Positions 1 through 62,797 of a DNA stretch of 64,000 nucleotides are shown piece by piece. The translations under genes and the position numbers were made by a program. The stretch is from the NCBI RefSeq assembly GCF_000723405.1, contig NZ_CCAE010000008.1, positions 62,001-126,000 on the forward strand. The letters are read 5' to 3'. Origin of the DNA: Hydrogenophaga intermedia (lineage in GTDB: Bacteria; Pseudomonadota; Gammaproteobacteria; Burkholderiales; Burkholderiaceae_C). Below the pieces are notes generated by a model that saw only the letters and a program-made list of their open reading frames with translations, had not been told where the DNA came from and made no database searches. Position 1 is the first letter of the stretch, and each line of letters begins with the position of its first letter.

Positions 1-3000
1 GACAACACGCGCAAGCTGGCGACGCTGCTCGACGCCGAGATGCCGCCCGAGCGCTTCGCGCCACCCGCGCCTGTCGCGGTGGCCGCCGCACCAGTCGCAG
101 CCGAGGCCACCGCCCAGCCGCTGACCATGGTCGCGCCGCAAGCCATGGCCCTGCCCGCCTTCAACGCCGCCCCGTTGGCCGCCGGCCAGGGCGGCGCGCT
201 GCACACACTCATCCAGCAACAGATGCAGCTCATGGCGCAGCAGCTCGCGCTGCTCGCGGGCACTCCGGTGGCCGCAGCGCCCGCCACCACCGCGCCGGTC
301 GTGGCCTCCGCCGCTGCGGCCAGCGTGGCCGCCCCCGTGGCCCGCGCCAACGCCCCTGCCCCGGCCCCCGCGCCCGCTGCCAGCGCCGACACCAGCGAAC
401 AGCCCTCCATCAAGTCCCTGGTCGAGAAGCCCTTCGGCGCCTCGCCCCGTCTCACGCTGCAAGCCGGCCAGGACTTCACGCCCGCGCAACACCGCTGGAT
501 CGACGACTTCATCGCGAAGTACAACGCGCGCACCGCGAAGTCCAAGTCCTTCAGCCAGGACAACCGCAAGGTCATGGCCGACCCGCGCGTGGTCACCGGC
601 TTCAACCCGATGTGGAAGGACCTGGTCTACCCCATCGTCGTGGACCGCTCCAAGGGCGCCAGCCTCTGGGACCTGGACGGCAACGAGTACATCGACCTGC
701 TCTCCTGCTTCGGCGCCAACATGCTCGGCTACCAGCCCGATTACCTGTTGCAGGCCATGCACGAGCAGCTCGACCGCGGCCTGGAGGTCGGCCCGCAGCA
801 CCCGCTGTCGGCCGACGTGGCGCACCTGATTTCCAAGTTCACCGGCATGGAACGCGTGGGCTTTTGCAACACCGGCTCCGAGGCCGTGATGGGTGCCATG
901 CGCATCGCGCGCACCGTCACCGGCCGAAAGAAGATCGCGATCTTCAGCAACTCGTACCACGGCATCTTCGACGAGGTCATCGTGCGCGGCACCAAGCAGC
1001 TGCGCTCGCTGTCAGCCGCGCCGGGCATCCTGGCCAACGCGGTCGAGAACATCCTGGTGCTGGACTGGAACAGCGAAGAATCGCTGAAGGTGCTGCGCGA
1101 GCAGGGGCCGCAGCTCGCGGCCATCATGACCGAGCCGATCCAGAACAAGTACCCCAACATCCGCCCGCGCGAGTTCGTGCGCTCGCTGCGCGAAATCGCC
1201 GACGCCAGCGGCTGCGCGCTGATCTTCGACGAGGTCGTCACCGGTTTTCGCGTGGCACGCGGCGGCGCGCAAGAGTTCTACGGCGTGCGCGCCGACATCT
1301 CCACCTTCGGCAAGGTCATCGGCGGTGGCCTGCCCTTCGCGGCCATCGCCGGCAACGCCAACTGGCTGGACGCGCTGGACGGCGGCCACTGGCAGTACGG
1401 CGACAACTCCTACCCCGAAGCCGGCGTCACCTACTTCGCCGGCACCTTCGTGCGCCACCCGCTGGCCCTGGCCGCGGCCAAGGCCTCGCTCGAGCACATC
1501 GACCGCGCGGGCCCGGCCTTCTACAGCGAGATCAACAGCCGCACCCAGCGCATGATCGACCGCCTCAATGCCGGCTTCGCCCAACGCGGCGCACCCTGCA
1601 ACGCGGTCAACTGCGCCTCCATCTGGCGCCTGCACTGGGACGACGGACAGAAGAACGTCAGCCTCTTCTACTACCTCATCCGCCACCTCGGCCTGCACGT
1701 CTACGAACAGTTCGGCCACTTCGTGACCGAGGCCATGACGGAGGAGATCACCACCCGCATCGCCGACACCATCCTCAAGGCGCTTGACGAGCTGATGGCC
1801 CTGGGCTTCATCACCCGCCGCGACGGCGGCTCGCCCGGCGGCGGCCTGCCCCTGGACGCCGCGTCGAACACCCCGGCCACGTCCGCCCCCACCGAGGCCG
1901 CTCTCGCCCCCGGCCAGACCGAGCGCTGGCTGGTCGGCGCCTTCGACGACAACGCGCGCCGCGCGCTCAACGAATCCTTCTGCGTGAGCCTGCAGGGCAC
2001 TGTGGACAAGGCCGCGCTGCGCCAGGCCCTGCAGGACGTGGCCACGCGCCACGCCGCCTTCCACCTGAGCTTCGACACCACCGAGCCGCGCCAGAGCCTG
2101 CGACCCGCGCAGCCCGTGGCCATCGCCGAGGTGGACCTGCGCGGTGAGGCCGATGCCGACGCCGCGCTCGACGCCTTCTGCACCCAGGCCAGCCAGCGCG
2201 ACTTCCCCTTCGACCAGGCCCCACTCGCCGCCTTCAGCCTGCTCGACCTGTCCGATGGCCGTGTCGTCGTGCACGTGGTCGCCAGCCATTTGATCTTCGA
2301 CGGCTGGGCCTCCAGCGTCTTCAACGCCGAACTCGCCGAGGCCTATCAGGCGCGCCGCCAGGGCACGGCACCCAGCTTCGCCAAGCCCGCCGAATCGCCG
2401 CTGGCCTTCGCCATCGCCGAGCAGGCGCGTCAGGACGGCCCGCAGGCGAAAGAAGCGCTGGCGTTCTGGACCGATGTGATGCGCCAGCCGCCGCCGCCCG
2501 TGAACCTGGGCGACCGAAGTCCGCCGGGCCCGCGCCAGTTCAGCGCCGACACCGTGCGCGTGCGCATCGACGGCGCGCGCCTGGAGCAACTGCGCGCCCG
2601 CGCCAAGGCGCGCGGCGCCACGCTGTTCCAGTGGCTGCTCGCCGCCGTCACGCGCCTCATCCACGAGCGCAGTGGCCAGGGCGAATTCGTCGTCAGCATT
2701 CCCTACGCCAGCCAGTCGCTGCAGCGCCACGGCCCGCTCATGGCCGACGGCGTGCTCGACCTGCCGCTGCGACTGTCGTGCTCACCGCAGGACACCGATG
2801 AGGCGCTGCTCACGCGCGTGCGCTCGCACCTCATGGATGCCTTGGAGTACCCGGTCATGACGCAGGGCACCCTGGCCCGCGCCCTGGGCCTGCCCAGCCG
2901 CGGCGACCGCCCGCCGCTCACCGGCATCTACTTCAACCTCAACCCCAAGGTCGATCTCTCGGGCTACCTGCCGCTGCGCGCCGCCATGCACGAAGGCCGC

Positions 3001-6000
3001 AAGCAAGGCCTGCTGGCCGAGCTGTTCTTCAACTTCTACGAGCAGGACGCGGCGCTGACGCTGGACCTGCACCACAGCGCCGAGTTCTTCAGCCTCGAAC
3101 GCGCGCAGGCGCTGGTGGACGGCCTGCTGGCGCAGATCGATCGGCTCAATGGCTCGCCTGTTGCAACGACGAAGGTCGCGAGCGCGCCAGCCAAGTCCGC
3201 AGCCCCCGCCATCGACCCGCGCATCGCCGCCTGGAACCGCGCCACCGACGTGCCCTTCGACGTCACCACACGCGTCGAAGCCTCCATCACGCGCCAGGCC
3301 CAGGCCACGCCCGACGCCGTCGCCGTCATCGCGCGCGGCGAGTCGCTCACCTACGCACAACTCGACCAACGCGCCAACCGCTTCGGCCAACTGCTGGCCC
3401 AGCGCGGCATCGGCCCCGGCTCGCTGGTCGGCGTGTGCCTCTCGCGCGGCCCCGAGCTCGTGCCCGCGCTGCTGGGCATCCTGAAAACCGGCGCCGCCTA
3501 CGTGCCGCTGGACCCGAACTTCCCCAAGGACCGCCTGAGCTACATGGCCGAGGACGCCGAGCTGCGCCTGGTCATCACCGAATCCGCGCACGCCGCGCTG
3601 GCCGGCCTGCCGCGCGAACGGCAACTGCGCGTCGACGACGACCGCGCCCTCATCGACGCCGCGCCCGCCACCGCCCTGCCCGCGCCGCACAACCCCAGCG
3701 GCGACGCGCCGGTGTACGTGATCTACACCTCCGGCTCCACCGGCAAGCCCAAGGGCGTGGCCGTGCCGCAGCGCGCCGTCAGCAACTTCCTGATGACCAT
3801 GCAGCGCGAGCCGGGCCTCACCGCCAGCGACCGCCTGCTCGCGGTCACCACGCTGTCGTTCGACATCGCGGTGCTGGAGCTCTACCTGCCCCTGGTCACC
3901 GGTGCCTGCACCGTGCTGGCCCAGCGCGAGGAGATCATGGACGGCGAGGTGCTGGGCCGCCTCATCGCCGATCAGCGCATCAACGTGATGCAGGCCACCC
4001 CCACCACCTGGCACATGCTGCTGGACGCCGACTGGCGCGCGCCCGCGAACTTCCGCGCCCTGTGCGGTGGCGAGCCGCTGCCGCCCTCGCTGGCCGCGAA
4101 GCTGCTGGACCAGGACATCGAGCTGTGGAACATGTACGGCCCGACCGAGACCACCGTGTGGTCCACGCTCAGCCGCATCACCGACGCCACACAGAAGATC
4201 AGCATCGGCCACCCCATCGCCAACACCCAGGTCTGGGTGCTCGACGAGCAGGGCAAGCCCTGCGGCATCGGCCAGGAAGGTGAGCTCTGCATCGGCGGCA
4301 CCGGCGTGGCCAATGGCTACTTCAAGCGCCCCGAACTCACGGCCGATCGTTTCGTGCCCGACCCGTTCAGCACCGTGCCCGGCGCCCGCCTCTACCGCAC
4401 CGGCGACCTCGCCCGCTGGCTCGACAACGGTGGCCTCGAACACCTGGGCCGGCTGGACTTCCAGGTCAAGATCCGCGGCTACCGCATCGAACTCGGCGAG
4501 ATCGAGGCCCGCCTGGCCGCGCTGCCCGGCATTGCGCGCACCGTGGTGATGGCGCGCGAGGACACGCCCGGCGACGTGCGCCTGATCGCCTATGCCGTGC
4601 CTGCGGCTGGCGCCACGCCCGAGCCCGCCGCCCTGCGCGACGCCCTGCGCGGCGGCCTGCCCGACTACATGCTGCCCCAGCAGGTGGTGCTGCTCGATGC
4701 CATGCCGCTGCTGCCCAACGGCAAGATCGACCGCAAGGCCCTGCCCGCGCCCGTCGCCACCGCGCCGGTGTCCAGCGGCCCGCTCACCGCCGCCGCCACC
4801 GACACCGAGCGCGCTGTGCTGGAGGCCATGCAGGCCGTGCTCAAGCTGCCCGCCATCGGCGCCGACGAGGACTTCTTCGCCCTCGGTGGCCACTCGCTGC
4901 TCGCGGCCAAGCTCATGGGCCAGCTCAACAAGGGCCTCGGTCTGCAGTTGAACCTGCGCGTGCTGTTCGAATCGCCCACGGTGCAGAAACTCGCGCGCGC
5001 CATCGACGAGCAACGCGGCGGCAAGGCCCCGCAACGCCCGCCGCTGGTGCACCAGCCCGAGCGCCGCCAGGCCCCGCTCACGCTCATGCAGGAGCGCATC
5101 CGCTTCATCGAGGAGATGCACCCGGGCCGCGTGGTCTACAACGTGCCCTCGGCCCACCGCCTGCGCGGGCCCATGGACGAGGTCCTGTTTGACCAGGCCT
5201 TCCAGGCCATGGTGCGACGCCAGGCCTCGCTGCGGACCATCGTCGTGCGCGACGGCGACACCTGGGTGCAGCGCACGCTGGACCACGTGCCCTGCTCGCT
5301 CCTGCCGGTGGAAGACCTGAGCCACGTGCCCGAGGCCCGGCGCGAGGAGGCCATGACCGAGCTCGTGACCACCTGGGTGGCCCAGCCCTTCACGCTGGAC
5401 CAGGCCCCGCTGTTTCGCGCGCGCCTCATCCGCCTGGACGAGCAGCACCACATCTTCTTCTTCATGACCCACCACGTGGTGTGGGACGGTTGGTCCTTCG
5501 ACCTGCTGTACGAGAACATGAGCGCGTTCTACACGGCCCTGCTGGAACAGCGCGAGCCCGTGCTGCCCGCCATGCCGCTGCAGTACCTGGACTTCGCCGC
5601 CTGGCACAACGAGTGGATGGAAAGCGAGGAGATCGCAGGCCAGCTCGACCACTGGCAACGCCCCTTCCTCAAGCGCCCCGTGCCGGCCGCGCTGACCGAC
5701 CTGCCGCGCCTGCCCGGCGCGCAGCGCGTGGGCGCCACCGAGTACATGCACTTCGAGCCCGCGGACGCCGAGCGCGTGCGCGAAGTGGCCAAGCAGACCG
5801 GCTCCACGCTGAGCATCGTCGCGCTGTCGGTGTACGCCGTGCTGGCCTCGCAGTTGTTGCACGACCCGGAACCCACCATCGGCGTGCCCGTGCGCGGTCG
5901 TCCGCACCCGGACCTGGAGCCCATCATGGGCTTCTTCAACAACATGCTGCCGGTGCGCCTGGCCGTGCGGCCCGAGATGAGCTGGCTGGAGTGGATCAAG

Positions 6001-7938
6001 CACGTGCGCGCCACCATGGTGGACGCCTTCGCCAACCAGGACGTGCCCTTCGAACGCCTTTCCGCCGCGCTGGAGACCGCGCAGCCCGGCCTGCATGGCC
6101 GCCTCTACCAGGCGCTCTTCACCTTCCAGGACGCCCGCGCACGCCCCGCCAACTGGGGCCCGCTCACGCACCAGCGCACGCGCTTCAAACACCGCGGCGC
6201 CACCGAAGACCTGAACTTCTGGCTGGTGGAAATTCCCAGCGGCATCGAAGGCGGCATCCAGTACGACACCCAGCTCTTCCTGCCCAGCACCGCACAGTTG
6301 CTGCACAAGCGCTTCGTCGCCGCACTGATGGGCCTGGCCGCCGACCCGACCCGGCGCGTTGCCGAGACGCTCACGCCCAGTGCCGCCGAACTCGAGCAAC
6401 TGCGTGCCCTCGATGCCGCGCCCATCAGCGGCCACGACCTGCTCAAGGCCCTGGCCCGCGCCGATGGTGCCGTGCTGAACCATGCCGGCACGACCCTGGA
6501 CGGTGCCGCGCTGCAAGCCCGCGTGGCCGCCGCACGCGAGAAGCTGGGCGCGGGCAGCGGTGCCGTGGAGATCACGGCCGACGACCCGATCGACGCATTG
6601 GCCGGCGCCCTCGCCGCCTTCGGCGCGAACCGCGCCGTGCGCTGGGCCGGCGGCGCCGACACCGACGCCCGCCGATGGAGCGACACCGCCGAAGCCCTGG
6701 CCGCGCAGGTGCAATTGCTGCCGGGTGATCGCCTCGTCGTCCACGGCGGCGCGCCCGGCCTGCGCCTGGCCCTGCTGGGCCTGGCGCTGCGCCACGGGGT
6801 GGAACTGGTGCTGGCCGACGACACGACCGCACCCCAGGCCCTGGAGGCCTTGCACGCCGACAACACCGCCCTCGTCTTCGCCGACGCCAACGGCTGGGCC
6901 ACCCTGCTGCGGGCCAACGCCGGCCGCGCGCTCTCGCTCATCGCCGCGCTGGACGTGCGCGAGGCCAGCCCCGAGCTGATGCAGGCCCTGGCCGACGCCC
7001 AGGCCAGCGCCCTCAACCTGGCCCTCGACCCCGCCACCGGCCAGCCCCTGGCCATGGGCTGGGCGCACGGCCCCGCCGACCACGACACCTTCGGCAAACC
7101 CCTGCTGCGCGACACCCTGCGCATCGGCGACTCGGCCGATCGCCCCGCCGCCATCGGCGTGGCCGCGCCGCTGTGGGCGCGTGGTGCCGACGGCACCTGG
7201 CGCGCCACCGGCACGCTCGCGCGCTGGCGCTCCGACGGCGTGCTGCAAGCCATCGGCGAAGACGGTGCGCACGCCGTGCTCGGTGGCCAGCGCCTCGCGC
7301 TCGACGCGCTGGAGCGCGACATCGGCCAACTGCCCCTGGTGGCGCGCGCCGCCGCCGCGCTGCGCGTGGGCCCTCAGGGCGAACGCCACCTCCTGCTCGG
7401 CCTGGAGCCCGATGCGAACCTGCAGGACAGCGGCCTGGACGCGCTGCTGCAGCGCGTGAACCAGCGCCTGGCCCAGCTCGTGCCTGCCGCCGCGCGCGCC
7501 CATGTGGAAGTGATCTGCTACGACCGCCTGGCCACCACCGCCGAAGGCCGCCTGGCGCCTGCCTTCTCACGCCTTCGCCGCCGCGACAACGCCGCCCCGG
7601 CAGCCGACCACTTCCAGGGCACCCCCACCGAGCGCGAGATCTTCCTCGTCTGGAGCGAACTGCTGGGCACCACGTCCATCCGCCGCAACGACAACTTCTT
7701 CGACCTCGGCGGCACCTCGCTGAGTGCCATGCAGGCCGTGCAGAAGCTGGAGAAGCGCATCGGCCAGCAAGTGAGTCCGCGCCGTCTGGTGTCTGAAACC
7801 CTGGCCCAACTGGCCGCTGCCTGCGACGGCCAGGCCGGTGCGCCCGCCAGCGACACCCGCACCGAGGCCGCCACCAGTGCCCCGAAGAACGGCGGCGGCC
7901 TGATGTCCCGGCTGCGCCGTCTGGTGCAGGGCGCGTGA
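1..7938 (+). CDS. Hybrid NRPS with beta-aminotransferase: (ACP end)-AMT-C-A(Gly)-T-C-A*-T, 5' partial
   Basis: The reading frame is open from base 1, so the true start lies outside the window; the first ATG (40) is internal. Residues are numbered from base 1. The first ~20 residues resemble the last helix of a carrier domain, followed by an Ala/Pro linker. A class III (GSA-type) aminotransferase spans ~155-610, with FDEVVTGFR and the PLP lysine K438 in FGKVIGG; in MycA-like enzymes this domain turns a carrier-bound beta-ketone into a beta-amine. C1 is ~635-1060 (HLIFDG, H763). A1 is ~1075-1580, with TSGSTGKPKG, YGPTE and NGKIDRK; its pocket residues read DILQLGMVW plus K, a glycine-type code. 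T1 is at S1632. C2 is ~1690-2120 (HHVVWDG, H1824-G1830). Residues ~2155-2530 are a degenerate A domain lacking TSGSTG, YGPTE and the terminal catalytic Lys. T2 is GGTSL, S2573. There is no thioesterase domain; two hydrolase genes follow. Confidence 0.93.
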   Translation, partial: DNTRKLATLLDAEMPPERFAPPAPVAVAAAPVAAEATAQPLTMVAPQAMALPAFNAAPLAAGQGGALHTLIQQQMQLMAQQLALLAGTPVAAAPATTAPVVASAAAASVAAPVARANAPAPAPAPAASADTSEQPSIKSLVEKPFGASPRLTLQAGQDFTPAQHRWIDDFIAKYNARTAKSKSFSQDNRKVMADPRVVTGFNPMWKDLVYPIVVDRSKGASLWDLDGNEYIDLLSCFGANMLGYQPDYLLQAMHEQLDRGLEVGPQHPLSADVAHLISKFTGMERVGFCNTGSEAVMGAMRIARTVTGRKKIAIFSNSYHGIFDEVIVRGTKQLRSLSAAPGILANAVENILVLDWNSEESLKVLREQGPQLAAIMTEPIQNKYPNIRPREFVRSLREIADASGCALIFDEVVTGFRVARGGAQEFYGVRADISTFGKVIGGGLPFAAIAGNANWLDALDGGHWQYGDNSYPEAGVTYFAGTFVRHPLALAAAKASLEHIDRAGPAFYSEINSRTQRMIDRLNAGFAQRGAPCNAVNCASIWRLHWDDGQKNVSLFYYLIRHLGLHVYEQFGHFVTEAMTEEITTRIADTILKALDELMALGFITRRDGGSPGGGLPLDAASNTPATSAPTEAALAPGQTERWLVGAFDDNARRALNESFCVSLQGTVDKAALRQALQDVATRHAAFHLSFDTTEPRQSLRPAQPVAIAEVDLRGEADADAALDAFCTQASQRDFPFDQAPLAAFSLLDLSDGRVVVHVVASHLIFDGWASSVFNAELAEAYQARRQGTAPSFAKPAESPLAFAIAEQARQDGPQAKEALAFWTDVMRQPPPPVNLGDRSPPGPRQFSADTVRVRIDGARLEQLRARAKARGATLFQWLLAAVTRLIHERSGQGEFVVSIPYASQSLQRHGPLMADGVLDLPLRLSCSPQDTDEALLTRVRSHLMDALEYPVMTQGTLARALGLPSRGDRPPLTGIYFNLNPKVDLSGYLPLRAAMHEGRKQGLLAELFFNFYEQDAALTLDLHHSAEFFSLERAQALVDGLLAQIDRLNGSPVATTKVASAPAKSAAPAIDPRIAAWNRATDVPFDVTTRVEASITRQAQATPDAVAVIARGESLTYAQLDQRANRFGQLLAQRGIGPGSLVGVCLSRGPELVPALLGILKTGAAYVPLDPNFPKDRLSYMAEDAELRLVITESAHAALAGLPRERQLRVDDDRALIDAAPATALPAPHNPSGDAPVYVIYTSGSTGKPKGVAVPQRAVSNFLMTMQREPGLTASDRLLAVTTLSFDIAVLELYLPLVTGACTVLAQREEIMDGEVLGRLIADQRINVMQATPTTWHMLLDADWRAPANFRALCGGEPLPPSLAAKLLDQDIELWNMYGPTETTVWSTLSRITDATQKISIGHPIANTQVWVLDEQGKPCGIGQEGELCIGGTGVANGYFKRPELTADRFVPDPFSTVPGARLYRTGDLARWLDNGGLEHLGRLDFQVKIRGYRIELGEIEARLAALPGIARTVVMAREDTPGDVRLIAYAVPAAGATPEPAALRDALRGGLPDYMLPQQVVLLDAMPLLPNGKIDRKALPAPVATAPVSSGPLTAAATDTERAVLEAMQAVLKLPAIGADEDFFALGGHSLLAAKLMGQLNKGLGLQLNLRVLFESPTVQKLARAIDEQRGGKAPQRPPLVHQPERRQAPLTLMQERIRFIEEMHPGRVVYNVPSAHRLRGPMDEVLFDQAFQAMVRRQASLRTIVVRDGDTWVQRTLDHVPCSLLPVEDLSHVPEARREEAMTELVTTWVAQPFTLDQAPLFRARLIRLDEQHHIFFFMTHHVVWDGWSFDLLYENMSAFYTALLEQREPVLPAMPLQYLDFAAWHNEWMESEEIAGQLDHWQRPFLKRPVPAALTDLPRLPGAQRVGATEYMHFEPADAERVREVAKQTGSTLSIVALSVYAVLASQLLHDPEPTIGVPVRGRPHPDLEPIMGFFNNMLPVRLAVRPEMSWLEWIKHVRATMVDAFANQDVPFERLSAALETAQPGLHGRLYQALFTFQDARARPANWGPLTHQRTRFKHRGATEDLNFWLVEIPSGIEGGIQYDTQLFLPSTAQLLHKRFVAALMGLAADPTRRVAETLTPSAAELEQLRALDAAPISGHDLLKALARADGAVLNHAGTTLDGAALQARVAAAREKLGAGSGAVEITADDPIDALAGALAAFGANRAVRWAGGADTDARRWSDTAEALAAQVQLLPGDRLVVHGGAPGLRLALLGLALRHGVELVLADDTTAPQALEALHADNTALVFADANGWATLLRANAGRALSLIAALDVREASPELMQALADAQASALNLALDPATGQPLAMGWAHGPADHDTFGKPLLRDTLRIGDSADRPAAIGVAAPLWARGADGTWRATGTLARWRSDGVLQAIGEDGAHAVLGGQRLALDALERDIGQLPLVARAAAALRVGPQGERHLLLGLEPDANLQDSGLDALLQRVNQRLAQLVPAAARAHVEVICYDRLATTAEGRLAPAFSRLRRRDNAAPAADHFQGTPTEREIFLVWSELLGTTSIRRNDNFFDLGGTSLSAMQAVQKLEKRIGQQVSPRRLVSETLAQLAAACDGQAGAPASDTRTEAATSAPKNGGGLMSRLRRLVQGA

Positions 7939-7975: not shown

Positions 7976-8782
7976 ATGACGATCTCGATCAGGCACTTCG
8001 GCCGCTGGGACCGGCCGATGGTGGGGGTTCATGTGGCGGCCGACGGCGGCGCGAGTCCGCGCGCCCGCTTCCTCCTCTGCCGCCCCCTCGGCCAGGAAGC
8101 CGTGCGCAGCGCGGCCGTCTTCCGCGTGGCCGGCGAGCGGCTCTCGCGCGAAGGCATCGAATCCCTGCGCTTCGACTACCACGGCACCGGCGACTCCCCC
8201 GGCGCCGAGTCCACCCAGTCGCTGGACGACTGGGTGCAGGACACCCTGGCCGCGCACGAACTGCTGGCGGCCGATGGTGAACTGCCCGTGCACTGGTTCG
8301 GCATGGGCCTGGGTGCGGTCGTCGCCCTGCGCGCCGCCCTGCTGGCCAAACACCCGCCGCGCCACCTCGTCCTGTGGGAGCCGGTGTTCAAGGGCAGCCA
8401 CTACCTCGACGCGCTCATTGCCGGCCACAAGGCCGAGCTGGCCATGATGTACGCCCAGCCCTGGGAACAGATCGCCAGCAGCGGCAAGGTGACCGAGCCC
8501 ACGCTGCCCGGCGACGTCCTGGGCTTCGAGCTCGGCGAGCGCCTGGTCGCCGACCTGCGCGCCCTGCCCGACTTCAACGTACTGCCCGCGCTGCGGCGCG
8601 GCCTGCGCATCACCTGCGCCGTGCGTGGCGACCAGCCCCACCCCTTCAACGGCCACGCGGGCCTGCCCACGCTCAAGCTGCACACCGTCGAACACCCCAC
8701 CGACTGGATGTCCAGTCAGGCCATGGGCACCGCCATCGCGCCGCCCGACATCCCGCGGGTGCTGCTCGCGTCCCTTGACTGA
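7976..8782 (+). CDS. Alpha/beta-hydrolase without nucleophile (Gly elbow)
   Basis: 268 aa, starting 37 nt after the NRPS stop. It shows an alpha/beta-hydrolase core: the RFDYHGTGDS segment, then a nucleophile elbow that reads FGMGLGA instead of GxSxG, so G111 sits where Ser or Cys should be. It resembles the partner-type hydrolases seen in exosortase-A/EPS loci (family recalled, not searched). With no elbow nucleophile it is unlikely to be a normal esterase; a structural partner or carrier-binding role is possible. Its neighbour 5 nt downstream has a Cys elbow. The same Cys/no-nucleophile pairing occurs again at 10273-11936. No signal peptide is evident, so it is probably cytosolic. Confidence 0.82.
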   Translation: MTISIRHFGRWDRPMVGVHVAADGGASPRARFLLCRPLGQEAVRSAAVFRVAGERLSREGIESLRFDYHGTGDSPGAESTQSLDDWVQDTLAAHELLAADGELPVHWFGMGLGAVVALRAALLAKHPPRHLVLWEPVFKGSHYLDALIAGHKAELAMMYAQPWEQIASSGKVTEPTLPGDVLGFELGERLVADLRALPDFNVLPALRRGLRITCAVRGDQPHPFNGHAGLPTLKLHTVEHPTDWMSSQAMGTAIAPPDIPRVLLASLD

Positions 8783-8787
8783 ACCGC

Positions 8788-9648
8788 ATGCAGGAGCAGA
8801 CCCGCATCGTCGGCGCCGAAGGCCACCTCGTCGCCACCTTCACCCCGGCCCAGGGCGCGCCCGGCGCAGAGGCGCCCGTCGTCGCCGTGCTCAGCAACTC
8901 CGGCGTCATCCCGCGCAGCGGGCCGCACCGCATCAACGTGCTGCTGGCGCGCGAGCTCGCGGCCATGGGCATCCCCTCGGTGCGTTTCGACATGAGCGGC
9001 CTGGGCGACAGCCAGCGCAGCAACAGCACCCGCTCCGTCACCGAACAATGGGTGGCCGACACGCGTGAGGTGATGGACGCGGCGCAGGCCCAGTTCGGCT
9101 GCGGGCGCTTCTTCATGGTGGGCCTGTGCTCCGGCGCCATCATCGGCCACCTCGTCGCACTGGAGGACCAGCGCATGCGCGGCGTGCTGCTGTGGGACAT
9201 GTACGCCTACCCCACGCTGCAATCGCGCCTGCGCAAGCTGGCCTTCAAGATCGGGCGCGCGGGGCTCCTCGGTTCGACGCAAAAGGCCGGCGTGATGCTG
9301 ATGCGCAAACTGCACCTCATGCCGCCCGACGACGCACCGGAAAAGCCCAAAGGGGAAATGTCGGTGTCACCGCCCAAAGCCGAGTTCATGGGCCGCGTGG
9401 ACCGGCTCACCAACCAGGGTGTGGAACTGCTGTTTGCCTACTGCGGCGGGCAACCCGAGTGGTTCAACCACCGCGGTCAGTTCGCGGCGATGTTCGCGGG
9501 GCAGCCGTGGCTGCCGAAGGTGGCGTTCGAACTGCTGGAGACCACCGACCACCTGATCACGAGCGGGCCGGCCAAGCGGGCCTTCATCGACATGACGACG
9601 GGGTGGGTGAGGGCACGCGTGTTACCGGGGGTGGGGCGTCACTCGTAG
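8788..9648 (+). CDS. Alpha/beta-hydrolase with cysteine elbow
   Basis: 286 aa, starting 5 nt after the preceding hydrolase, so probably co-translated. The elbow is GLCSGA with C114 as the candidate nucleophile, preceded by an RFDMSGLGDS segment typical of alpha/beta-hydrolases. A late TTDHLIT segment could supply the catalytic His. Because the upstream NRPS has no TE domain, a trans-acting release or editing role on T1/T2 is a reasonable inference. The gene ends the + strand operon; its stop overlaps the convergent yoeB stop by 10 nt, leaving no room for a conventional terminator. The paralogue at 10273-11172 has the same GLCSGA elbow. Confidence 0.85.
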   Translation: MQEQTRIVGAEGHLVATFTPAQGAPGAEAPVVAVLSNSGVIPRSGPHRINVLLARELAAMGIPSVRFDMSGLGDSQRSNSTRSVTEQWVADTREVMDAAQAQFGCGRFFMVGLCSGAIIGHLVALEDQRMRGVLLWDMYAYPTLQSRLRKLAFKIGRAGLLGSTQKAGVMLMRKLHLMPPDDAPEKPKGEMSVSPPKAEFMGRVDRLTNQGVELLFAYCGGQPEWFNHRGQFAAMFAGQPWLPKVAFELLETTDHLITSGPAKRAFIDMTTGWVRARVLPGVGRHS

Positions 9649-9905
9649 TGCGTCCACATGCGCAGGATGCGGACCACCCGCTCCTTCGCAAACACCTCGT
9701 AGACCAGACGGTTGTGGATGTTGATCCGCCGCGAGTAGGCGCCGGCGAGATCTCCCAGCAGCTTCTCGAAGGCTGGTGGATTCTGAAACGGGTCCCTTTC
9801 GAGGATCGCCAACAGCTCTTCGACTTTAGGCTTCAGTCCTGCCGCCTTGACCTTCTTCGCGTCCTTGAGCGCCTGCTTCGCGTAGGCCAGCTCCCACTTC
9901 ACCAT
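9639..9905 (-). CDS. yoeB: YoeB-family mRNA interferase toxin
   Basis: 88 aa, close to the usual ~84-90 for YoeB/Txe. The C-terminal block YSRRINIHNRLVYEV ... RMWTHYE is diagnostic: the conserved Arg of RLVY and the terminal His-Tyr (H86, Y87) correspond to the residues needed for ribosome-dependent mRNA cleavage in E. coli YoeB. The ATG overlaps the 3' end of yefM by 7 nt, the usual coupled antitoxin-then-toxin order. The stop overlaps the convergent hydrolase stop. It appears intact. It is unrelated to PKS/NRPS chemistry but sits exactly at the convergence of the two biosynthetic operons. Confidence 0.93.
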   Translation of the reverse strand: MVKWELAYAKQALKDAKKVKAAGLKPKVEELLAILERDPFQNPPAFEKLLGDLAGAYSRRINIHNRLVYEVFAKERVVRILRMWTHYE

Positions 9906-10141
9906 TTCAGTTCGCGGGCGCTCTTGGCCAAAGGCTCAGCCATACCTTTGCGAATGGACTCGCGCATGCCCGGCACGGACAGCAGGTGCATCGTCTCCTG
10001 CATGGCGGCCCAGTCCTCGGCCGACACCAACACGGCCGAAGCATTCTTGCCGGCAATGATGACGGGCTGATGCGACTCGGTCGCCTGATCGATCAGGCGA
10101 TAGAGATTGGCGCGCGCGGCGGATGCGGTCAACACGTTCAT
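9899..10141 (-). CDS. yefM: YefM-family antitoxin
   Basis: 80 aa. The N-terminus MNVLTASAARANLYRLIDQ followed by a VIIAGKNASAVLVSAEDW block is the Phd/YefM DNA-binding fold; the basic/acidic C-terminal part would wrap the YoeB toxin. It is first in the two-gene operon and overlaps yoeB by 7 nt. The ATG has a GGAG Shine-Dalgarno 6 nt upstream and a good promoter at 10164-10192. In this family the antitoxin represses its own promoter, with YoeB as co-repressor. Confidence 0.93.
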   Translation of the reverse strand: MNVLTASAARANLYRLIDQATESHQPVIIAGKNASAVLVSAEDWAAMQETMHLLSVPGMRESIRKGMAEPLAKSARELKW

Positions 10142-10163
10142 GGGGTACTCCGGAAGGAGCGAA

Positions 10164-10192
10164 AGCGTACGTTTTTACGCACGCCATGTCAA
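10164..10192 (-). promoter_or_regulatory. yefM-yoeB promoter
   Basis: On the - strand TTGACA (10192-10187) is followed after exactly 17 nt by TACGCT (10169-10164). The -35 is a perfect sigma-70 consensus; the -10 is weaker. The ATG is 22 nt beyond the -10. This is the clearest promoter in the window. Confidence 0.72.
10165..10180. promoter_or_regulatory. Candidate YefM operator overlapping the -10
   Basis: GCGTA (10165-10169) and TACGC (10176-10180) form an inverted repeat around a 6-nt spacer and overlap the -10 of the yefM promoter, where an autorepressor would act. YefM/YoeB complexes are known to bind short palindromes at their own promoter; the match to this site is inferred. Confidence 0.45.
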
Positions 10193-10230
10193 GACATGCA
10201 TTCACCGCTGCCGCCGCCGCTCCCACACAG

Positions 10231-10264
10231 CGCCAAGCGAGGAGCACTCTTGCTCCTTCTGGCG
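10231..10264 (-). terminator. Hairpin after the last gene of the - strand operon (candidate terminator)
   Basis: The arms AGGAGCA (10240-10246) and TGCTCCT (10251-10257) close a 4-nt loop, and an outer CGCCA/TGGCG pair (10231-10235, 10260-10264) lengthens the stem. It begins 9 nt past the stop of the last hydrolase. No T-run follows on the - strand, so intrinsic termination would be weak; it may instead stabilise the 3' end. Confidence 0.45.
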
Positions 10265-10272
10265 TTGCGGCA

Positions 10273-11172
10273 TCATCGAAACGCCGATTCCCCCATCCAC
10301 CGCCTCACCAACCCCACCAACCGCTGCTGACTCGCCAGCGTCGTGAACGTGTGGTCGCAGCGGTCGAAGTACTCGATCAGCAGTTTCCCCTTGAAGTCCA
10401 GCGAGGGAAACGCGTCCTGCAATTGCCGGCGGTAGTTGTGCTGGCGCTCGCGATCGGAGGTGAGCACGGCGAGGAACTGCGCGCCGTTGCCCAGCGCGCG
10501 GCCGTAGGCGTTTTCGAGGAAGGCGCGCACCTCGGGGTGTTCCAGCGTCACGGCGGGCCGCGCAGCGGCCATATCACTCGCCGCCCCGTCCTCCTCGGCA
10601 GGCACCTCGTGCGCGGGGCGCTTCTTCAGCAGCTTCCACAGCGGGTGCCGCCCCATGGCCACGTTCTTCCAGGTGCGCAGGCTCAGCAGGCGGCCGGAGT
10701 AGTGCTTGACGTAGTAGCCCGTGGTGCGCGGGATCGAAGGGTCGAGCAGGGCCACGCCAGCCACGCGCGGGTCGGTCGACGCATAGATCACCGAGTGATC
10801 GGCGCCCGAGCACAGGCCCATCAGCACCACGCGCTTCACCTGCCGCGTGGCCTGCAGGGTGTCGATGATCTCCCGTATGTCGGCCACGGTCGCGTCCAGC
10901 GGGGCCGAGCCGTCCTCGCGCGCGGCGCTGTCGCCCAGACCGGAGAGGTCCACGCGCAGCACGGGGAAACCATCGGCCGACAAGGCCCGCGCCAGCGACA
11001 CGTGCAGCCGGTTGGGACCGACGCGGTGGATGATGCCGGCGTTGAGAATGATGACGAAGGGCGGGTCCTCGCGCGGCACCTGTCCATCGGCCGGCGGCAG
11101 GGGCGGCGTGACGACGCCCACCAGGCCCTTGCCCTGACCCAGCAGCAATGTCTGTTCGGCGGCGTGGCTCAT
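10273..11172 (-). CDS. Alpha/beta-hydrolase with cysteine elbow (label K)
   Basis: 299 aa. The ATG (11172) overlaps the upstream hydrolase stop in an ATGA. It has the same architecture as the gene at 8788-9648: a RVDLSGLGDS segment, then GLCSGADH with C121 as candidate nucleophile, and a late FDRCDHTFTT segment for the catalytic His. It is the final gene of the ~52-kb - strand train. NrpsI, two genes upstream, ends in a bare T domain, so this enzyme and its partner are candidates for chain release or transfer. Family membership is clear; the role is inferred. Confidence 0.85.
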   Translation of the reverse strand: MSHAAEQTLLLGQGKGLVGVVTPPLPPADGQVPREDPPFVIILNAGIIHRVGPNRLHVSLARALSADGFPVLRVDLSGLGDSAAREDGSAPLDATVADIREIIDTLQATRQVKRVVLMGLCSGADHSVIYASTDPRVAGVALLDPSIPRTTGYYVKHYSGRLLSLRTWKNVAMGRHPLWKLLKKRPAHEVPAEEDGAASDMAAARPAVTLEHPEVRAFLENAYGRALGNGAQFLAVLTSDRERQHNYRRQLQDAFPSLDFKGKLLIEYFDRCDHTFTTLASQQRLVGLVRRWMGESAFR

Positions 11173-11936
11173 TGCACCGTCCAGTCCACGATGCGCCGAA
11201 GCAGCTTCACCGGCACGGCGCCCGCACCGGTGTGCCGGTCTTCCAGCCACGCGGGTTGTACCTCGATGGACTCGATGGCCGAGCCATCGCCCGGCGGCAG
11301 CGCGGCGCCCAGTGCGCGCCAGGCATCGCGCGCTTCGCTCACCACGGCCAGCGTGCGCGCGGGCCAGGTAGGCGCGGGGTTCACCAGGTCGATGCCTTCG
11401 ATGTCCTGCACCAGCGCCTCGTTCATGGGAAAACCGAGCAGCTCCGAAGCCCCATCGCTCAGGCCGCGCGTGCGCAGGGTCTGCGCGTGCAAATCGCGCA
11501 ACTCCGCCAGATGCTCACGCCCGCTGACCACCGGATCCCACAGCACCAGACCGTCCACGTCGCGCCGGCGCTTCGCGGCCGCGCGCGCGGCAAGCGTGGC
11601 GCCCAGGCGCAGGCCCACCAGCGTCACGCGCTGCAGGCCGGCGGTGTCCTTCAGTTCGTCGATGGCGGTCTGCACGTCCTCGATCCAGCCGTCGAGGCGC
11701 GCCTCGCCCATGTCGCCGGCCGAGTCGCCAGTGCCGTGGTAGTCGAAGCGCAGCACGTGCACGCCCGCTTCACCGAGCCACTTACCCAACTGGGCCATGC
11801 TGCGGTGGGCGCGCAGGTACTCCGCGCCCCAGGGCGCGCACAGCACCGCACCGCGCGCCCGGCCACCGGTGGCGTGCGCGGGCGTGTAGAGCCCGAACAG
11901 GCGGCGCGAGCGCTCGCCGAAGTAGAGGGGCGTCAT
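11169..11936 (-). CDS. Alpha/beta-hydrolase without nucleophile (Arg elbow, label J)
   Basis: 255 aa. I start it at the ATG at 11936 because this overlaps the NrpsI stop as ATGA; the frame runs open further upstream only as a shadow inside NrpsI. The LRFDYHGTGDS segment is intact, but the elbow reads VGLRLGATL, with R110 where Ser or Cys is expected. GLRLGA is, as I recall, seen in hydrolases of exosortase-A loci, so the substitution may be a family trait rather than recent decay. It is paired with the Cys-elbow enzyme downstream (ATGA overlap), mirroring the pair at 7976-9648. Confidence 0.82.
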   Translation of the reverse strand: MTPLYFGERSRRLFGLYTPAHATGGRARGAVLCAPWGAEYLRAHRSMAQLGKWLGEAGVHVLRFDYHGTGDSAGDMGEARLDGWIEDVQTAIDELKDTAGLQRVTLVGLRLGATLAARAAAKRRRDVDGLVLWDPVVSGREHLAELRDLHAQTLRTRGLSDGASELLGFPMNEALVQDIEGIDLVNPAPTWPARTLAVVSEARDAWRALGAALPPGDGSAIESIEVQPAWLEDRHTGAGAVPVKLLRRIVDWTVQ

Positions 11937-14900
11937 GCCTTGACCACCCCCTTGCCAGCCGCCGCCGAAGCGACCACCTGGCGCAGGTTCTGGAAGAACA
12001 GGGTGCGCGCGTCCATGCGCCAGCCCAGCTTCTGCTCCACCGCCAGCACCACGCGCAAGGAGAGCAGCGAGTGCCCGCCGAGTTCGAAGAAGTTGTCCTC
12101 CGCGCCCACGCGCTCCACCTTCAGGATGTCGCGCCAGATCTCGGCCATGGTCTGCTCGGCCCCGCCCTCGGGCGGCACGAAGTGGCGCGCGGCCTGCACC
12201 GCGTTCTTGAAGGGGTCGGGCAGCGCGGCGCGGTCGACCTTGCCGTTGGGCGTGAGCGGGATCGTGTCCACCGCCGCCACCACGGACGGGATCATGTAAT
12301 CGGGCAGGTCGCGGCGCAGGTGGCGGCGCACGTCGCTGGCGGTCAGGTCGGCGCCCGGCGCGAAGACGATGTAGGCCACCAGGCGCAGGTCGCCGGGCGC
12401 GGCCTCGCGGCCCATCACCACGGTTTGCTGCACGGCCTCGTGCGTGGCCAGGCGGGTTTCGATCTCGCCGAGCTCGATCCGGAAGCCGCGGATCTTGACC
12501 TGGTGGTCGAGCCGGCCCAGGTGGTGCAGGCGCCCGTCGGCGTCCCAGCGCGCGAGGTCGCCGGTGCGGTAGAGGCGAGCGCCCGATGACGACGCGAACG
12601 GATCGGCCACGAAGCGCTCGGCCGTGAGCTCGGGCCGCTGGTGGTACCCCAGGGCCACGCCCGCGCCGCCGATCCACAGCTCACCGGGCACGCCCACGGG
12701 CAGGGGCTGCTGCTGTGCGTCGAGCACGTAGACCTGGGTGTTGGCGATGGGCCGGCCGATGGTGACCGGCGCGGGCGATGGCGCCACGCGCTCGGCCGTC
12801 GACCAGATGGTCGTCTCGGTGGGGCCGTAGAGGTTCCAGAGCTGGCCCACGCGCGCGAGCAGCGCATCGGCCAGTTCGCGCGGCAGGCCTTCGCCGCCGC
12901 AGAAGGCGCGCAGGTTCGGCGAACCGGTCCAGCCCGATTCGATGAGCAGCCGCCAGGTGGCGGGCGTGGCCTGCAGCACCGTGGCGCCGCCGGCCTGCAA
13001 GGCCTTGGCGAGGTCCTGTCCGTCGCTCGCGGTGTCGCGCGAAATCAGTTCTACGCGCGCGCCCACCAGCAGCGGCAGGTACAACTCCAGGCCGGCGATG
13101 TCGAAAGAGATGGTGGTGACAGCGGCCAGCACGTCGTCCGCCGTCAGGCCCGGCGCCTCGCGCATGGTGCCGAGGAAGTTGCTCAGCCCACCGTGCGCCA
13201 CCACCACGCCCTTGGGGCGTCCGGTGGAGCCGGAGGTGTAGATCACGTAGACCGGGTCGCTCGGCGCGGTGTTGCCATCGAGGTCTGCGCTGTCCAGCGC
13301 TGCCAGCGCCGCGGCCTCGCGCGCCGGGTCGAACACGCGCCCACCGGCGGGCGCATCCACCGCGTCGGCCGCTTCACCGGTAGTGAGCAGCACCGTGGCG
13401 CCGCTGTCCTCCAGCATGTAGGCCAGGCGCTCGGCGGGGAAGCCCGGGTCCAGCGGCACGTAGGCGCCGCCGGCCTTCTGCACCGCGAGCAGCGCCACCA
13501 GCATGTCCAGCGAGCGTTCGATGCACACGCCCACGCGCACGCCCGGCGCCACGCCCAGCGCGCGCAGGTGGCGCGCCCACTGGTTGGCGCGGCGGTTGAG
13601 TTCGCCGTAGTTCAACGACGCGCCTTCGAAGCGCGCGGCCTCGCGGTCCGGCGCGCTCGCGGCCTGGCGCTCGAACTGGCGCACGAATGGGGCCGTGTCG
13701 AGCGACCGTGCGCTGGCATTGAAGTCCACCAGGATCTGGTGGCGCTCATCCGCGGTGAGCAGCGGCAGGCGGCTGATCGGCGCGTCGCCCTGCTCCACCA
13801 CGGCGCGCAGCAGCGTCTGCAGTTGCGAGCCCAGGCGTTGCATGTGCGCGGCGGAATACAGGTCGCTGCGGTACTCCAGGCTGCACAGGATGCGCCCCTC
13901 ATGCTCGCGCGCGAACCAGGTGATCTCGTTGAGCGCGCCGCCGCTGTGCACAGCCACGTCGCCTTGCCCACCTGCGGCACCGCCGGCCTGGTGGTAGACC
14001 ACCGCGAACTGGAACAGCGGCGAGTGCTGGAAGCTGCGCACCGGGCGCACGCGCTCCACCACGGCCTCGAAGGGCGTCTCGCGGTGCGCGTGCGCGTCCA
14101 GCAAGGCGCCGCGCGCGCGGGCCAGCAACTCGGAGAAGGCCGGGTCGTCGGCCGTGCGCACGCGCAGCACCAGCAGGTTGACGAAGGGGCCGATGAGGTC
14201 TTCGAACTCGGCCCTTTCGCGCACGCCCATGGGGCTGCCGAGCAGCACGTCGCCCTGCCCCGTGTGCGCGCGCAGCAGCGCGGCGGCGGCGGCCAGGAAG
14301 GCCATGTAGACGGTGGCGTGGCGCTCGTGCACCCAGCGCTTGAGCGCGGCGCTGAAGGCGGCGTCGAACTCGAAGTCCACCGTGGCGCCGCGCGCGGGCG
14401 CGTCGCTGGCCGGCAGGTCGGGCGGGAACATCGAGGTCTGCGGCGCGCCCTTGAGCGCGTCGTCCCACCAGTCGAGTTCGGCGCGGATGGCATCGGGGTG
14501 CTGGTGCTCGCGCTGCCAGGCGGCGTAGTCGGCGTACTGCAGGCGTGCGGAAGGTTCGGACGGTTCGGGTGATTCGGGCGCGGGCGCTTTCAGCTCCTGC
14601 GCCAGCTCGCGCAACAGGATCTGCAGCGACCACGCGTCCACCGCGATGTGGTGCGCCGCCACGATGAGCGCGTAGCCCTCGGGCGCGAAGTCCAGCAACT
14701 CGAAGCGCAGCGGCGTCTGGCGCGACAGGTCGATGGGCGTGTGCACCGCGCGCTCCCGCGCGGCCTGCACGGCGGCCAGGCGTTCGTTGGCGGGCAGGTG
14801 GCGCAGGTCGTGCACGGTCACGGGCGGCACGTCCACGCGGCGCGCGCCGGGCACCTCGCCCTCTTGCACGAAGTGCACGCGCAGGCCCAGGTGGCGCGCG

Positions 14901-15286
14901 TGCACGCGCTGCACGGCGGCCAGCAGTTGCTCGCGCGGCACCTCGCCATTCACCGGCCAGGCCAGGGCCAGCAGGTAGGTGGTGCTCTCCGGCTCCAGTT
15001 GCTGCAGGATCCACAGGCGTTCCTGGAACAGCGAGAGCGGCAACAGGCCGTCGTGCGCCACGGTGGGGCGCGGCGCGGCCTCGGCTTTCGGCGCTGGATG
15101 CGGCGCGTGCGCCACCGCGCCGCGCTCGGCCAGCAGCGCCATCAGTTCGGTCTTGTGCCCGGCGATGGCGGTTTTCAGCTCGTCGTCGAGCCGGCCGCGG
15201 CTGGCGCTCACGCGCAGCCGGCCTTCGGCCACCTCCAGGTCCACACCCAGCCCCTCCAGCCGGTGCAGCAGTTCACGCGCGTTCAA
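11933..15286 (-). CDS. NrpsI: TubC-type docking-C-A(Gly)-T
   Basis: 1117 aa. The start is TTG (15286) overlapping the PksH stop as TTGA, with GGGAGGAG 8 nt upstream; it yields a complete N-terminal docking domain (~1-60) of the TubC_N beta-hairpin type. C is ~75-500 with HHIAVDAW (H212-H213); the motif glycine is replaced by A218, a mild variant. A is ~520-1020 with TSGSTGRPKG and YGPTETT; its pocket residues read DILQFGLIW plus the K of NGKVDR, a glycine-type code. T is GGHSL, S1073. The protein stops soon after T with no TE, epimerase or reductase. It should add the second glycine after PksH and then hand over or release its chain; hydrolase genes J and K follow directly. Confidence 0.93.
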   Translation of the reverse strand: MNARELLHRLEGLGVDLEVAEGRLRVSASRGRLDDELKTAIAGHKTELMALLAERGAVAHAPHPAPKAEAAPRPTVAHDGLLPLSLFQERLWILQQLEPESTTYLLALAWPVNGEVPREQLLAAVQRVHARHLGLRVHFVQEGEVPGARRVDVPPVTVHDLRHLPANERLAAVQAARERAVHTPIDLSRQTPLRFELLDFAPEGYALIVAAHHIAVDAWSLQILLRELAQELKAPAPESPEPSEPSARLQYADYAAWQREHQHPDAIRAELDWWDDALKGAPQTSMFPPDLPASDAPARGATVDFEFDAAFSAALKRWVHERHATVYMAFLAAAAALLRAHTGQGDVLLGSPMGVRERAEFEDLIGPFVNLLVLRVRTADDPAFSELLARARGALLDAHAHRETPFEAVVERVRPVRSFQHSPLFQFAVVYHQAGGAAGGQGDVAVHSGGALNEITWFAREHEGRILCSLEYRSDLYSAAHMQRLGSQLQTLLRAVVEQGDAPISRLPLLTADERHQILVDFNASARSLDTAPFVRQFERQAASAPDREAARFEGASLNYGELNRRANQWARHLRALGVAPGVRVGVCIERSLDMLVALLAVQKAGGAYVPLDPGFPAERLAYMLEDSGATVLLTTGEAADAVDAPAGGRVFDPAREAAALAALDSADLDGNTAPSDPVYVIYTSGSTGRPKGVVVAHGGLSNFLGTMREAPGLTADDVLAAVTTISFDIAGLELYLPLLVGARVELISRDTASDGQDLAKALQAGGATVLQATPATWRLLIESGWTGSPNLRAFCGGEGLPRELADALLARVGQLWNLYGPTETTIWSTAERVAPSPAPVTIGRPIANTQVYVLDAQQQPLPVGVPGELWIGGAGVALGYHQRPELTAERFVADPFASSSGARLYRTGDLARWDADGRLHHLGRLDHQVKIRGFRIELGEIETRLATHEAVQQTVVMGREAAPGDLRLVAYIVFAPGADLTASDVRRHLRRDLPDYMIPSVVAAVDTIPLTPNGKVDRAALPDPFKNAVQAARHFVPPEGGAEQTMAEIWRDILKVERVGAEDNFFELGGHSLLSLRVVLAVEQKLGWRMDARTLFFQNLRQVVASAAAGKGVVKA

Positions 15287-62738: not shown

Positions 62739-62797
62739 CGGGCACCCCGGCGGCTGGTTTCCTGACGTTCGATGGCCGGTGCGACCTTGCATTGCAT
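62735..62797 (-). CDS. 20-aa leader ORF coupled to the thioesterase
   Basis: An ATG at 62797 carries the best Shine-Dalgarno upstream of the - strand train (AGAGGA, 7 nt before it) and encodes MQCKVAPAIERQETSRRGAR. Its TGA overlaps the thioesterase ATG as ATGA, while that ATG itself has only a poor ribosome site. It is probably the true translation entry point of the operon. I recognise no family; it may be only a coupling leader. An in-frame extension to 62929 exists but has no good ribosome site. Confidence 0.5.
   Translation of the reverse strand: MQCKVAPAIERQETSRRGAR

What the first reader, a model, noticed from the sequence alone, without database searches (positions are those of the whole stretch)
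7976..11936. Two mirrored pairs of alpha/beta-hydrolases, each pair joining a Cys-elbow enzyme with a nucleophile-less partner
After each TE-less NRPS terminus lies the same two-gene unit. One protein has GLCSGA (C114 or C121); the other has FGMGLGA (G111) or GLRLGA (R110). In both units the nucleophile-less gene is first and directly follows the NRPS. Hydrolases of similar type occur in exosortase-A/EPS loci (recalled). A dedicated two-subunit Cys hydrolase for releasing, transferring or editing PKS/NRPS chains would be unusual.
Basis: partly seen in the sequence, partly recalled or inferred. Interest (0 to 1): 0.72.

Follow-up and report, generated by a model that had tools for sequence, protein, structure and literature searches.

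The report
Two-part release enzyme beside peptide synthetases
Beside two peptide-building assembly lines lies a repeated pair of related proteins, one with a reactive cysteine and one that has lost its active site; relatives of the pair recur next to carrier proteins in other bacteria, and it probably takes the finished chain off its carrier.

Summary
Each of two convergent assembly lines ends in a carrier (T) domain with no thioesterase domain, followed by a nucleophile-less alpha/beta-hydrolase (hyd2) and a Cys alpha/beta-hydrolase (hyd1); a third pair lies elsewhere in the genome. Of 55 relatives found through hyd1, 51 have hyd2 just upstream and 37 have a carrier domain directly before hyd2. 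In 75 aligned pairs hyd1 always has Cys at the elbow; hyd2 has Arg (70) or Gly (5). Related pairs serve exosortase-A loci and a class with hyd2 and hyd1 fused; T-hyd2 fusions also occur. I read it as a two-subunit, Cys-dependent unit that takes chains off carrier proteins, hyd2 being the docking subunit (inferred; no biochemistry). The window proteins are homologues of TIGR03100/TIGR03101 but score far below their cut-offs. I found no print record of the NRPS branch, the class-specific move of the probable catalytic acid, or the nearby surface-polysaccharide genes (29 of 55 loci, 1 of 20 control stretches). Hydrolysis, cyclisation and transfer cannot be told apart. A type II thioesterase gene in the cluster and a degenerate A domain before pair 1 leave room for rivals.

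The parts
7976..8782 (+). pair 1, hyd2: nucleophile-less alpha/beta-hydrolase partner (GMGLGA, G111)
   Evidence: ORF; PF12146 44.9 bits; TIGR03101 75.4 bits against cut-off 202.75
8788..9648 (+). pair 1, hyd1: Cys alpha/beta-hydrolase (GLCSGA, C114; H255; probable acid D137)
   Evidence: PF12146 30.3 bits; TIGR03100 51.6 bits against cut-off 168.45; residue counts; AF2 model pLDDT 87.8
11169..11936 (-). pair 2, hyd2 (GLRLGA, R110); ATGA overlaps with the NRPS stop and the hyd1 start
   Evidence: PF12146 55.3 bits; TIGR03101 115.1 bits against 202.75; AF2 model pLDDT 90.3
10273..11172 (-). pair 2, hyd1: Cys alpha/beta-hydrolase (GLCSGA, C121)
   Evidence: PF12146 36.5 bits; TIGR03100 93.2 bits against 168.45
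1..7938 (+). 3' part of NRPS/PKS gene 1 (the ORF begins 4.7 kb before the window, C8:57285): A-T-KS-AT-T-aminotransferase-C-A-T-C-(degenerate A)-T
6403..7590 (+). degenerate A region of the last module: none of five A core motifs (A3, A5, A7, A8, A10) found
   Evidence: no second PF00501 match in the gene
7639..7818 (+). terminal T domain of gene 1 (GGTS)
11933..15286 (-). terminal NRPS gene of line 2: TubC_N docking-C-A-T (A core motifs present), no TE domain
11969..12148 (-). terminal T domain of line 2
   Evidence: PF00550 44.6 bits
15283..61977 (-). rest of line 2: seven PKS proteins, one further C-A-T NRPS, an EamA transporter and a 210-aa protein with no Pfam match
61974..62792 (-). stand-alone type II-like thioesterase (PF00975)
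   Evidence: 166 bits
63113..63814 (+). Sfp-type phosphopantetheinyl transferase
   Evidence: PF01648 60.2 bits

Best explanation
Hyd2-hyd1 is a two-subunit, Cys-dependent alpha/beta-hydrolase unit that takes an acyl, aminoacyl or peptidyl chain off a carrier-protein thioester. Hyd1 is the enzyme: the elbow Cys (C114/C121) takes the chain from the phosphopantetheine thiol and a His with an Asp (D137 in the NRPS class) activates it. Hyd2 keeps the fold but has no nucleophile and no conserved His; it most likely docks the T domain or ACP and holds hyd1 to it. In the window each pair most likely off-loads the line that it follows. Shown: gene order, coupling, Cys/His and Arg/Gly conservation, fusions, shared inheritance. 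Inferred: complex formation, docking role, off-loading. Not resolved: whether the acyl-enzyme goes to water, to an internal nucleophile or to an outside acceptor.
For: Order T, hyd2, hyd1: 37 of 55 relatives and 3 of 3 own pairs; 28 of these 40 have 30-208 nt between T and hyd2, too little for a TE domain. Fusions in that order only: T-hyd2 in one ORF in L114, L115, L149 and own pair 3; hyd2-hyd1 in one ORF in 15 of the 22 class-b and class-c loci fetched. Hyd1 Cys 75 of 75, His 72 of 72 rows that reach it; hyd2 Arg 70 and Gly 5 of 75. Exosortase-A locus of the same genus: ACP (PF00550 21.9 bits, cut-off 20.8) then TIGR03101 (274.3 bits) and TIGR03100 (277.5 bits) with TIGR03098 ligase (712.7 bits); AcpS and ACP near the fused gene in L092. 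Distances of hyd1 and hyd2 mirror each other: r 0.87 over 75 pairs, 0.84 within NRPS class plus own, 0 of 2000 permutations as high. Three own pairs sit in three clades, each with the same outside relatives in both trees, support 98-100. Probable acid after beta-6 (D137, 49 D and 1 E of 50 NRPS-class rows), the usual place in NRPS TE domains according to passages of PMC11298585.
Against: No biochemistry and no complex model: only single chains were folded. 16 of 55 relatives have hyd2 but no T domain within 1.2 kb before it, and 2 more show no hyd2 on hyd1's strand in the stretch held. A type II-like TE gene is in line 2. Before pair 1, and in 12 other of the 40 cases, the last module has no recognised A domain, so its T may not carry the finished chain. 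In the fused class the ACP lies about 2.5-2.9 kb before hyd2 with another gene between. The acid is read off an alignment and a predicted fold; 6 of 50 NRPS-class rows also have Asp at column 222. Fold search gives only general alpha/beta-hydrolases. Mirrored distances do not remove shared species history.
Confidence: 0.6

Rival explanations
1. Editing or repair pair: hyd2-hyd1 works like a type II thioesterase, clearing misprimed or stalled carriers, while the line is released otherwise (by the cluster's TE gene, by a C domain with a free amine, or by cyclisation).
For: The last module of gene 1 has an intact C domain motif (HHVVWDG), a degenerate A region and an intact T, like glidonin module 13, where the C domain adds free putrescine and the TE only affects yield (passages of PMC10587159). 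PPTase genes lie just before hyd2 in L116 and L087, as for carrier-upkeep genes.
Against: Line 2 already has a PF00975 type II-like gene. The pair sits at the 3' end of the last gene and is fused to the last T domain in four loci. 27 of 40 T-linked pairs follow a last module with an A domain.
Confidence: 0.2
2. Carrier-to-carrier shuttle of the CmaE/SyrC kind (recalled: Cys alpha/beta-hydrolase aminoacyltransferases that load a T domain lacking its own A domain): the pair loads the last T domain instead of emptying it.
For: 13 of 40 T-linked pairs, pair 1 among them, follow a last T domain without a recognised A domain. The recalled precedents use an elbow Cys.
Against: 27 of 40, pair 2 among them, follow a module with an A domain scoring over 100 bits, where no loading help is needed. 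Direct sequence comparison with CmaE or SyrC was not made.
Confidence: 0.1
3. Hyd2 is the chain-binding or acceptor-binding subunit rather than a T-domain dock; the elbow Arg binds a phosphate or carboxylate of the acceptor.
For: Arg in 70 of 75 at the former nucleophile place, across all three classes.
Against: Pair 1 and four relatives have Gly there. T-hyd2 fusions put hyd2 next to the carrier.
Confidence: 0.1

Closest known systems
Exosortase A-associated hydrolases 1 and 2 (TIGR03100 hydr1_PEP, TIGR03101 hydr2_PEP)
   Same: Best NCBIfam hits of all four proteins; same order hydr2-hydr1; hyd1 elbow Cys (7 of 7) and hyd2 elbow Arg (7 of 7); ACP just upstream in 3 of the 7 loci as called by a simple gene finder
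   Different: Window scores 51.6/93.2 against 168.45 and 75.4/115.1 against 202.75; probable acid after beta-6 instead of beta-7; large NRPS/PKS instead of a lone ligase and ACP
NRPS thioesterase domains with a Cys nucleophile (SulM, ObiF, AB3403)
   Same: Cys-Asp-His alpha/beta-hydrolase at the end of a line; acid after beta-6 as in AB3403 and most NRPS TEs (passages of PMC11298585)
   Different: Stand-alone, no PF00975 match for any of the four, obligate-looking nucleophile-less partner
Glidonin termination module C-A*-T with two TE domains (Schlegelella brevitalea)
   Same: Terminal C, truncated or degenerate A, T, then two alpha/beta-hydrolase-fold units (passages of PMC10587159)
   Different: Glidonin TEs are fused and both carry GXSXG; here they are separate, one with Cys and one without a nucleophile
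CmaE/SyrC aminoacyltransferases (recalled, not compared)
   Same: Cys alpha/beta-hydrolase fold enzymes acting on T domains
   Different: Single proteins in the recalled cases; no partner
BotH (bottromycin epimerase, PDB 6t6h)
   Same: Rank 43 of the hyd2 fold search; recalled as an alpha/beta-hydrolase without a working nucleophile
   Different: Acts alone on a ribosomal peptide (recalled)

Membership tests
TIGR03100 hydr1_PEP | score over the curated cut-off (168.45 bits) | tested here: not met
   51.6 and 93.2 bits. In 299 family genomes 73 pass; every match listed as failing scores 106.8 bits or less
TIGR03101 hydr2_PEP | score over the curated cut-off (202.75 bits) | tested here: not met
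   75.4 and 115.1 bits
exosortase-A hydrolase locus | TIGR03098 ligase and a free ACP beside the pair | tested here: not met
   NRPS loading A domain scores 217.3 bits against TIGR03098's 592.35 and passes TIGR01733 (334.9, cut-off 317.4); but an XrtA/PEP-CTERM glycosyltransferase (TIGR03013, 501.2 bits, cut-off 393.35) lies 6.7 kb before NRPS gene 1
PF00975 thioesterase | Pfam match | tested here: not met
   no match for any of the four proteins at E 0.001
PF12146 Hydrolase_4 | Pfam match over gathering score 27 | tested here: met
   44.9, 30.3, 36.5, 55.3 bits
Cys-His-Asp alpha/beta-hydrolase (hyd1) | conserved nucleophile and His | tested here: met
   Cys 75 of 75, His 72 of 72 rows that reach the column
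Cys-His-Asp alpha/beta-hydrolase (hyd1) | acid placed for a triad | tested here: inconclusive
   D137 in 52 and E in 1 of 53 own and NRPS-class rows; Asn there in 22 of 22 other rows, which mostly have D or E at 222 (20 of 22); no coordinates measured
CmaE/SyrC-type aminoacyltransferase | sequence kinship and carrier-to-carrier transfer | not tested
   recalled family; no sequence was fetched
carrier-protein off-loading enzyme | discharges an acyl-carrier thioester | not testable with these tools
   needs an assay

The most novel reading that the evidence does not exclude
A two-subunit transacylase couples NRPS/PKS lines to the cell surface: hyd2 docks the last carrier, hyd1 takes the chain on its Cys and passes it to a polysaccharide or its lipid-linked precursor, giving a peptidyl- or polyketidyl-decorated exopolysaccharide; the exosortase-A hydrolases 1 and 2 would be the small version of the same machine.
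Probability: 0.2. Interest if true: 0.87.

Novelty: new variant of a known kind. Interest (0 to 1): 0.6.

Why it matters
If the reading holds, it explains how a group of NRPS/PKS lines without a TE domain let go of their product, gives a testable biochemical role (carrier off-loading) to the exosortase-A hydrolases 1 and 2, whose NCBIfam names state no function, and adds an enzyme-plus-dead-partner design to chain release. The polysaccharide genes nearby raise the question of assembly-line products attached to surface glycans. It also gives a genome-mining marker: T domain, hyd2 (GxRLGA), hyd1 (GxCSGA).

Tried and rejected
Recent duplication of one pair inside this genome: rejected; each of the three own pairs groups with other genomes' pairs in both trees. 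Exosortase as the thread common to the NRPS class: not borne out; 13 of 19 genomes with an NRPS-class hyd1 have an exosortase match against 154 of 299 overall, and the own exosortase lies on another contig without a pair in the 20 kb read around it. Canonical TIGR03100/TIGR03101 membership: rejected by cut-offs. Plasmid spread: 7 of 72,556 plasmid records match hyd1, none over 60% identity. Genomes with a pair but without NRPS: 8 of 8 tested where the pair was not adjacent to NRPS still hold NRPS-like genes elsewhere; no background set was run, so this is weak. Clustering of flanking ORFs was swamped by shadow ORFs and not used. Control for polysaccharide genes: 20 arbitrary stretches from 10 of these genomes.

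Correction to my own notes: an earlier count said the NRPS class has no Asp at column 222; one search shows Asp there in 6 of 50.
Full report
Observation. Pair 1 follows the 3' end of an NRPS/PKS gene that starts 4.7 kb before the window (C8:57285-69938; domain order). Pair 2 follows the last NRPS of a minus-strand PKS/NRPS line running from 61977 down to 11933 and is tied to it by ATGA overlaps. Neither last NRPS has a PF00975 domain. A third pair lies on contig C18; there hyd2 shares an ORF with a T domain. Searches of the own genome with hyd1 of pair 1 and hyd2 of pair 2 found these three pairs plus cross-matches and one weak hit (C40, E 8.7e-4).

What the proteins are. All four are PF12146 alpha/beta-hydrolases. 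Their best NCBIfam hits are TIGR03101 for hyd2 and TIGR03100 for hyd1, far below the cut-offs. AF2 models have mean pLDDT 87.8 (hyd1, pair 1) and 90.3 (hyd2, pair 2). Fold searches return general alpha/beta-hydrolases: esterases and lipases, with the thioesterase DcsB and VinJ among the first 50 for hyd1, and DcsB and BotH among the first 50 for hyd2.

Survey. In 299 genomes of the same family, 106 have a hyd1 match and 76 a hyd2 match at E 1e-15 or better (these mix all three classes, and only the 8 best candidates per genome were scored). I fetched all 18 other genomes whose hyd1 scored 174 bits or more (L072-L089) and 22 lower-scoring loci (L090-L111). A scan of genome contigs by two hyd1 peptide patterns gave 38 loci, four of them the same places as loci already fetched. 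From a phylum-wide search (16 of 398 genomes at E 1e-30) I fetched the three best outside the family (L161-L163). This gives 55 NRPS-type relatives (18 + 34 + 3). In 51 of 55 hyd2 lies just upstream of hyd1 on the same strand; the others are L080 (11 kb apart), L147 (divergent), L123 and L139 (none on that strand in the stretch held; L139 is at a contig edge). In 37 of 55, and in all 3 own pairs, a T domain is the nearest assembly-line domain before hyd2, within 1.2 kb and on the same strand; 28 of these 40 gaps are 30-208 nt, 12 are 822-1131 nt. One long gap was annotated and holds a PPTase (L116); two more hold a TE-like gene on the other strand (L143, L146). Of the 40, 27 follow a module with an A domain over 100 bits and 13 do not. 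TE domains in relatives were sought only with a profile made from the window's one TE, a weak test; the short gaps are the better argument.

Three classes. (a) NRPS type, genes apart (50 of the 75 pairs aligned, plus 3 own). (b) Hyd2-hyd1 in one ORF (15 loci). L092 was annotated: AcpS, ACP, a GH2-like protein, the fused gene, an acyltransferase-3/SGNH protein; small ACP-like ORFs about 2.5-2.9 kb before hyd2 were seen in 7 of 15. (c) Exosortase-A type (7 loci); in L106, of the same genus, ACP, TIGR03101 and TIGR03100 lie in a row beside TIGR03098 and TIGR03013; ACP-like ORFs directly before hyd2 were called in 3 of 7. One fused locus (L105) groups with class c in both trees.

Residues. Across the 75 pairs hyd1 has Cys at the elbow in 75; His is present in 72 of 72 rows that reach that column. 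Hyd2 has Arg in 70 and Gly in 5, and never Ser, Cys or Asp. Column 137 of hyd1, just after beta-6, is Asp in 52 and Glu in 1 of 53 own and NRPS-class rows, and Asn in 22 of 22 rows of the other two classes; column 222, after beta-7, is Asp in 7 of 7 class-c rows and Asp or Glu in 13 of 15 class-b rows, but Asp also in 6 of 50 NRPS-class rows. I take this as a move of the catalytic acid; it is an alignment reading. Passages of PMC11298585 place the acid after beta-6 in most NRPS TE domains and after beta-7 in SulM and ObiF.

Inheritance. Hyd1 and hyd2 distance matrices correlate: r 0.87 over 75 pairs; 0.84 in the NRPS class plus own, 0.80 in the fused class, 0 of 2000 permutations as high each time. 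This does not remove shared species history. In both trees own pair 1 groups with L078, own pair 2 with L074 and L077, own pair 3 with L114 and L115, support 98-100 (quick method, SH-aLRT only). So the mirrored pairs are not a recent duplication but separately inherited units. The trees disagree on the deeper place of the pair-2 clade.

Surroundings. 29 of 55 NRPS-type loci carry at least one surface-polysaccharide marker (glycosyltransferases, flippase, O-antigen ligase, sugar dehydrogenase, deacetylase, EpsB-like transferase) in the stretch held, against 1 of 20 arbitrary 20-kb stretches from ten of the same genomes, and 4 of 14 fused loci (Fisher one-sided p 9.5e-5 for the first contrast). 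Markers came from some of these loci; self-hits were dropped, but relatives hit each other, so loci are not independent, and most Aquabacterium loci are negative. Near the window, TIGR03013 lies 6.7 kb before NRPS gene 1. In G507 the pair is not beside an NRPS, but one lies about 15 kb away on the same contig, with polysaccharide genes in the part of the gap that was read. Exosortase itself is not enriched: 13 of 19 NRPS-class genomes against 154 of 299.

Mechanism. The order T, hyd2, hyd1, with fusions T-hyd2 and hyd2-hyd1 but none seen between T and hyd1, suggests that hyd2 bridges carrier and enzyme. Cys attack on a thioester is plausible chemistry. What receives the chain is open. Pair 1 follows C-(degenerate A)-T, which recalls glidonin module 13 (passages of PMC10587159), where the C domain itself adds an amine; there the pair could be an editor.

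Literature. Ten full-text searches of an open-licence library found no description of these pairs with NRPS; most subscription journals are not held, so this is weak evidence of novelty. Passages of PMC7293339 cite a report that N-acyl amino acid synthase genes are often adjacent to PEP-CTERM/exosortase genes, another carrier-linked chemistry at such loci.

Verdict. A real, recurrent two-gene unit; probably a two-subunit carrier off-loading enzyme; a new variant of a known kind.

Noticed in passing
window 9639-10141 (-): A YoeB-like toxin and Phd/YefM antitoxin gene pair (PF06769 41.4 bits, PF02604 72.5 bits) sits between the two convergent hydrolase pairs; its last bases overlap the end of hyd1 of pair 1.
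   Followed up: partly
L010:1869-4392 (-), own contig C18: Third pair: an ORF with an N-terminal linker, one T domain and hyd2, then hyd1, with no C, A or KS domain in the 20 kb held; looks like a stand-alone unit or the remnant of a lost NRPS gene. Nearest relatives (Hydrogenophaga, L114, L115) have the T-hyd2 fusion; in L114 it ends a C-A-T module.
   Followed up: partly
hyd1 columns 137 and 222, loci L072-L149: The probable catalytic acid seems to move from after beta-7 (exosortase and fused classes) to after beta-6 (NRPS class).
   Followed up: partly
window 6403-7590: Last module of NRPS gene 1 has a 396-residue A region in which none of five core motifs was found, between an intact C motif and an intact T domain.
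   Followed up: partly
L006:7221-8612 (own contig C8, before the window): XrtA/PEP-CTERM glycosyltransferase (TIGR03013) 6.7 kb before the NRPS gene, while the only exosortase match of the genome is on another contig.
   Followed up: partly
L092, L095, L096, L098-L101: A polysaccharide-type cluster in which an ACP-like ORF and a roughly 850-aa gene (GH2-like in L092) precede a fused hyd2-hyd1 gene; function unknown.
   Followed up: no
window 15283-62792 (-): Large PKS/NRPS line (seven PKS modules, two NRPS modules, three methyltransferase domains); product not predicted.
   Followed up: no
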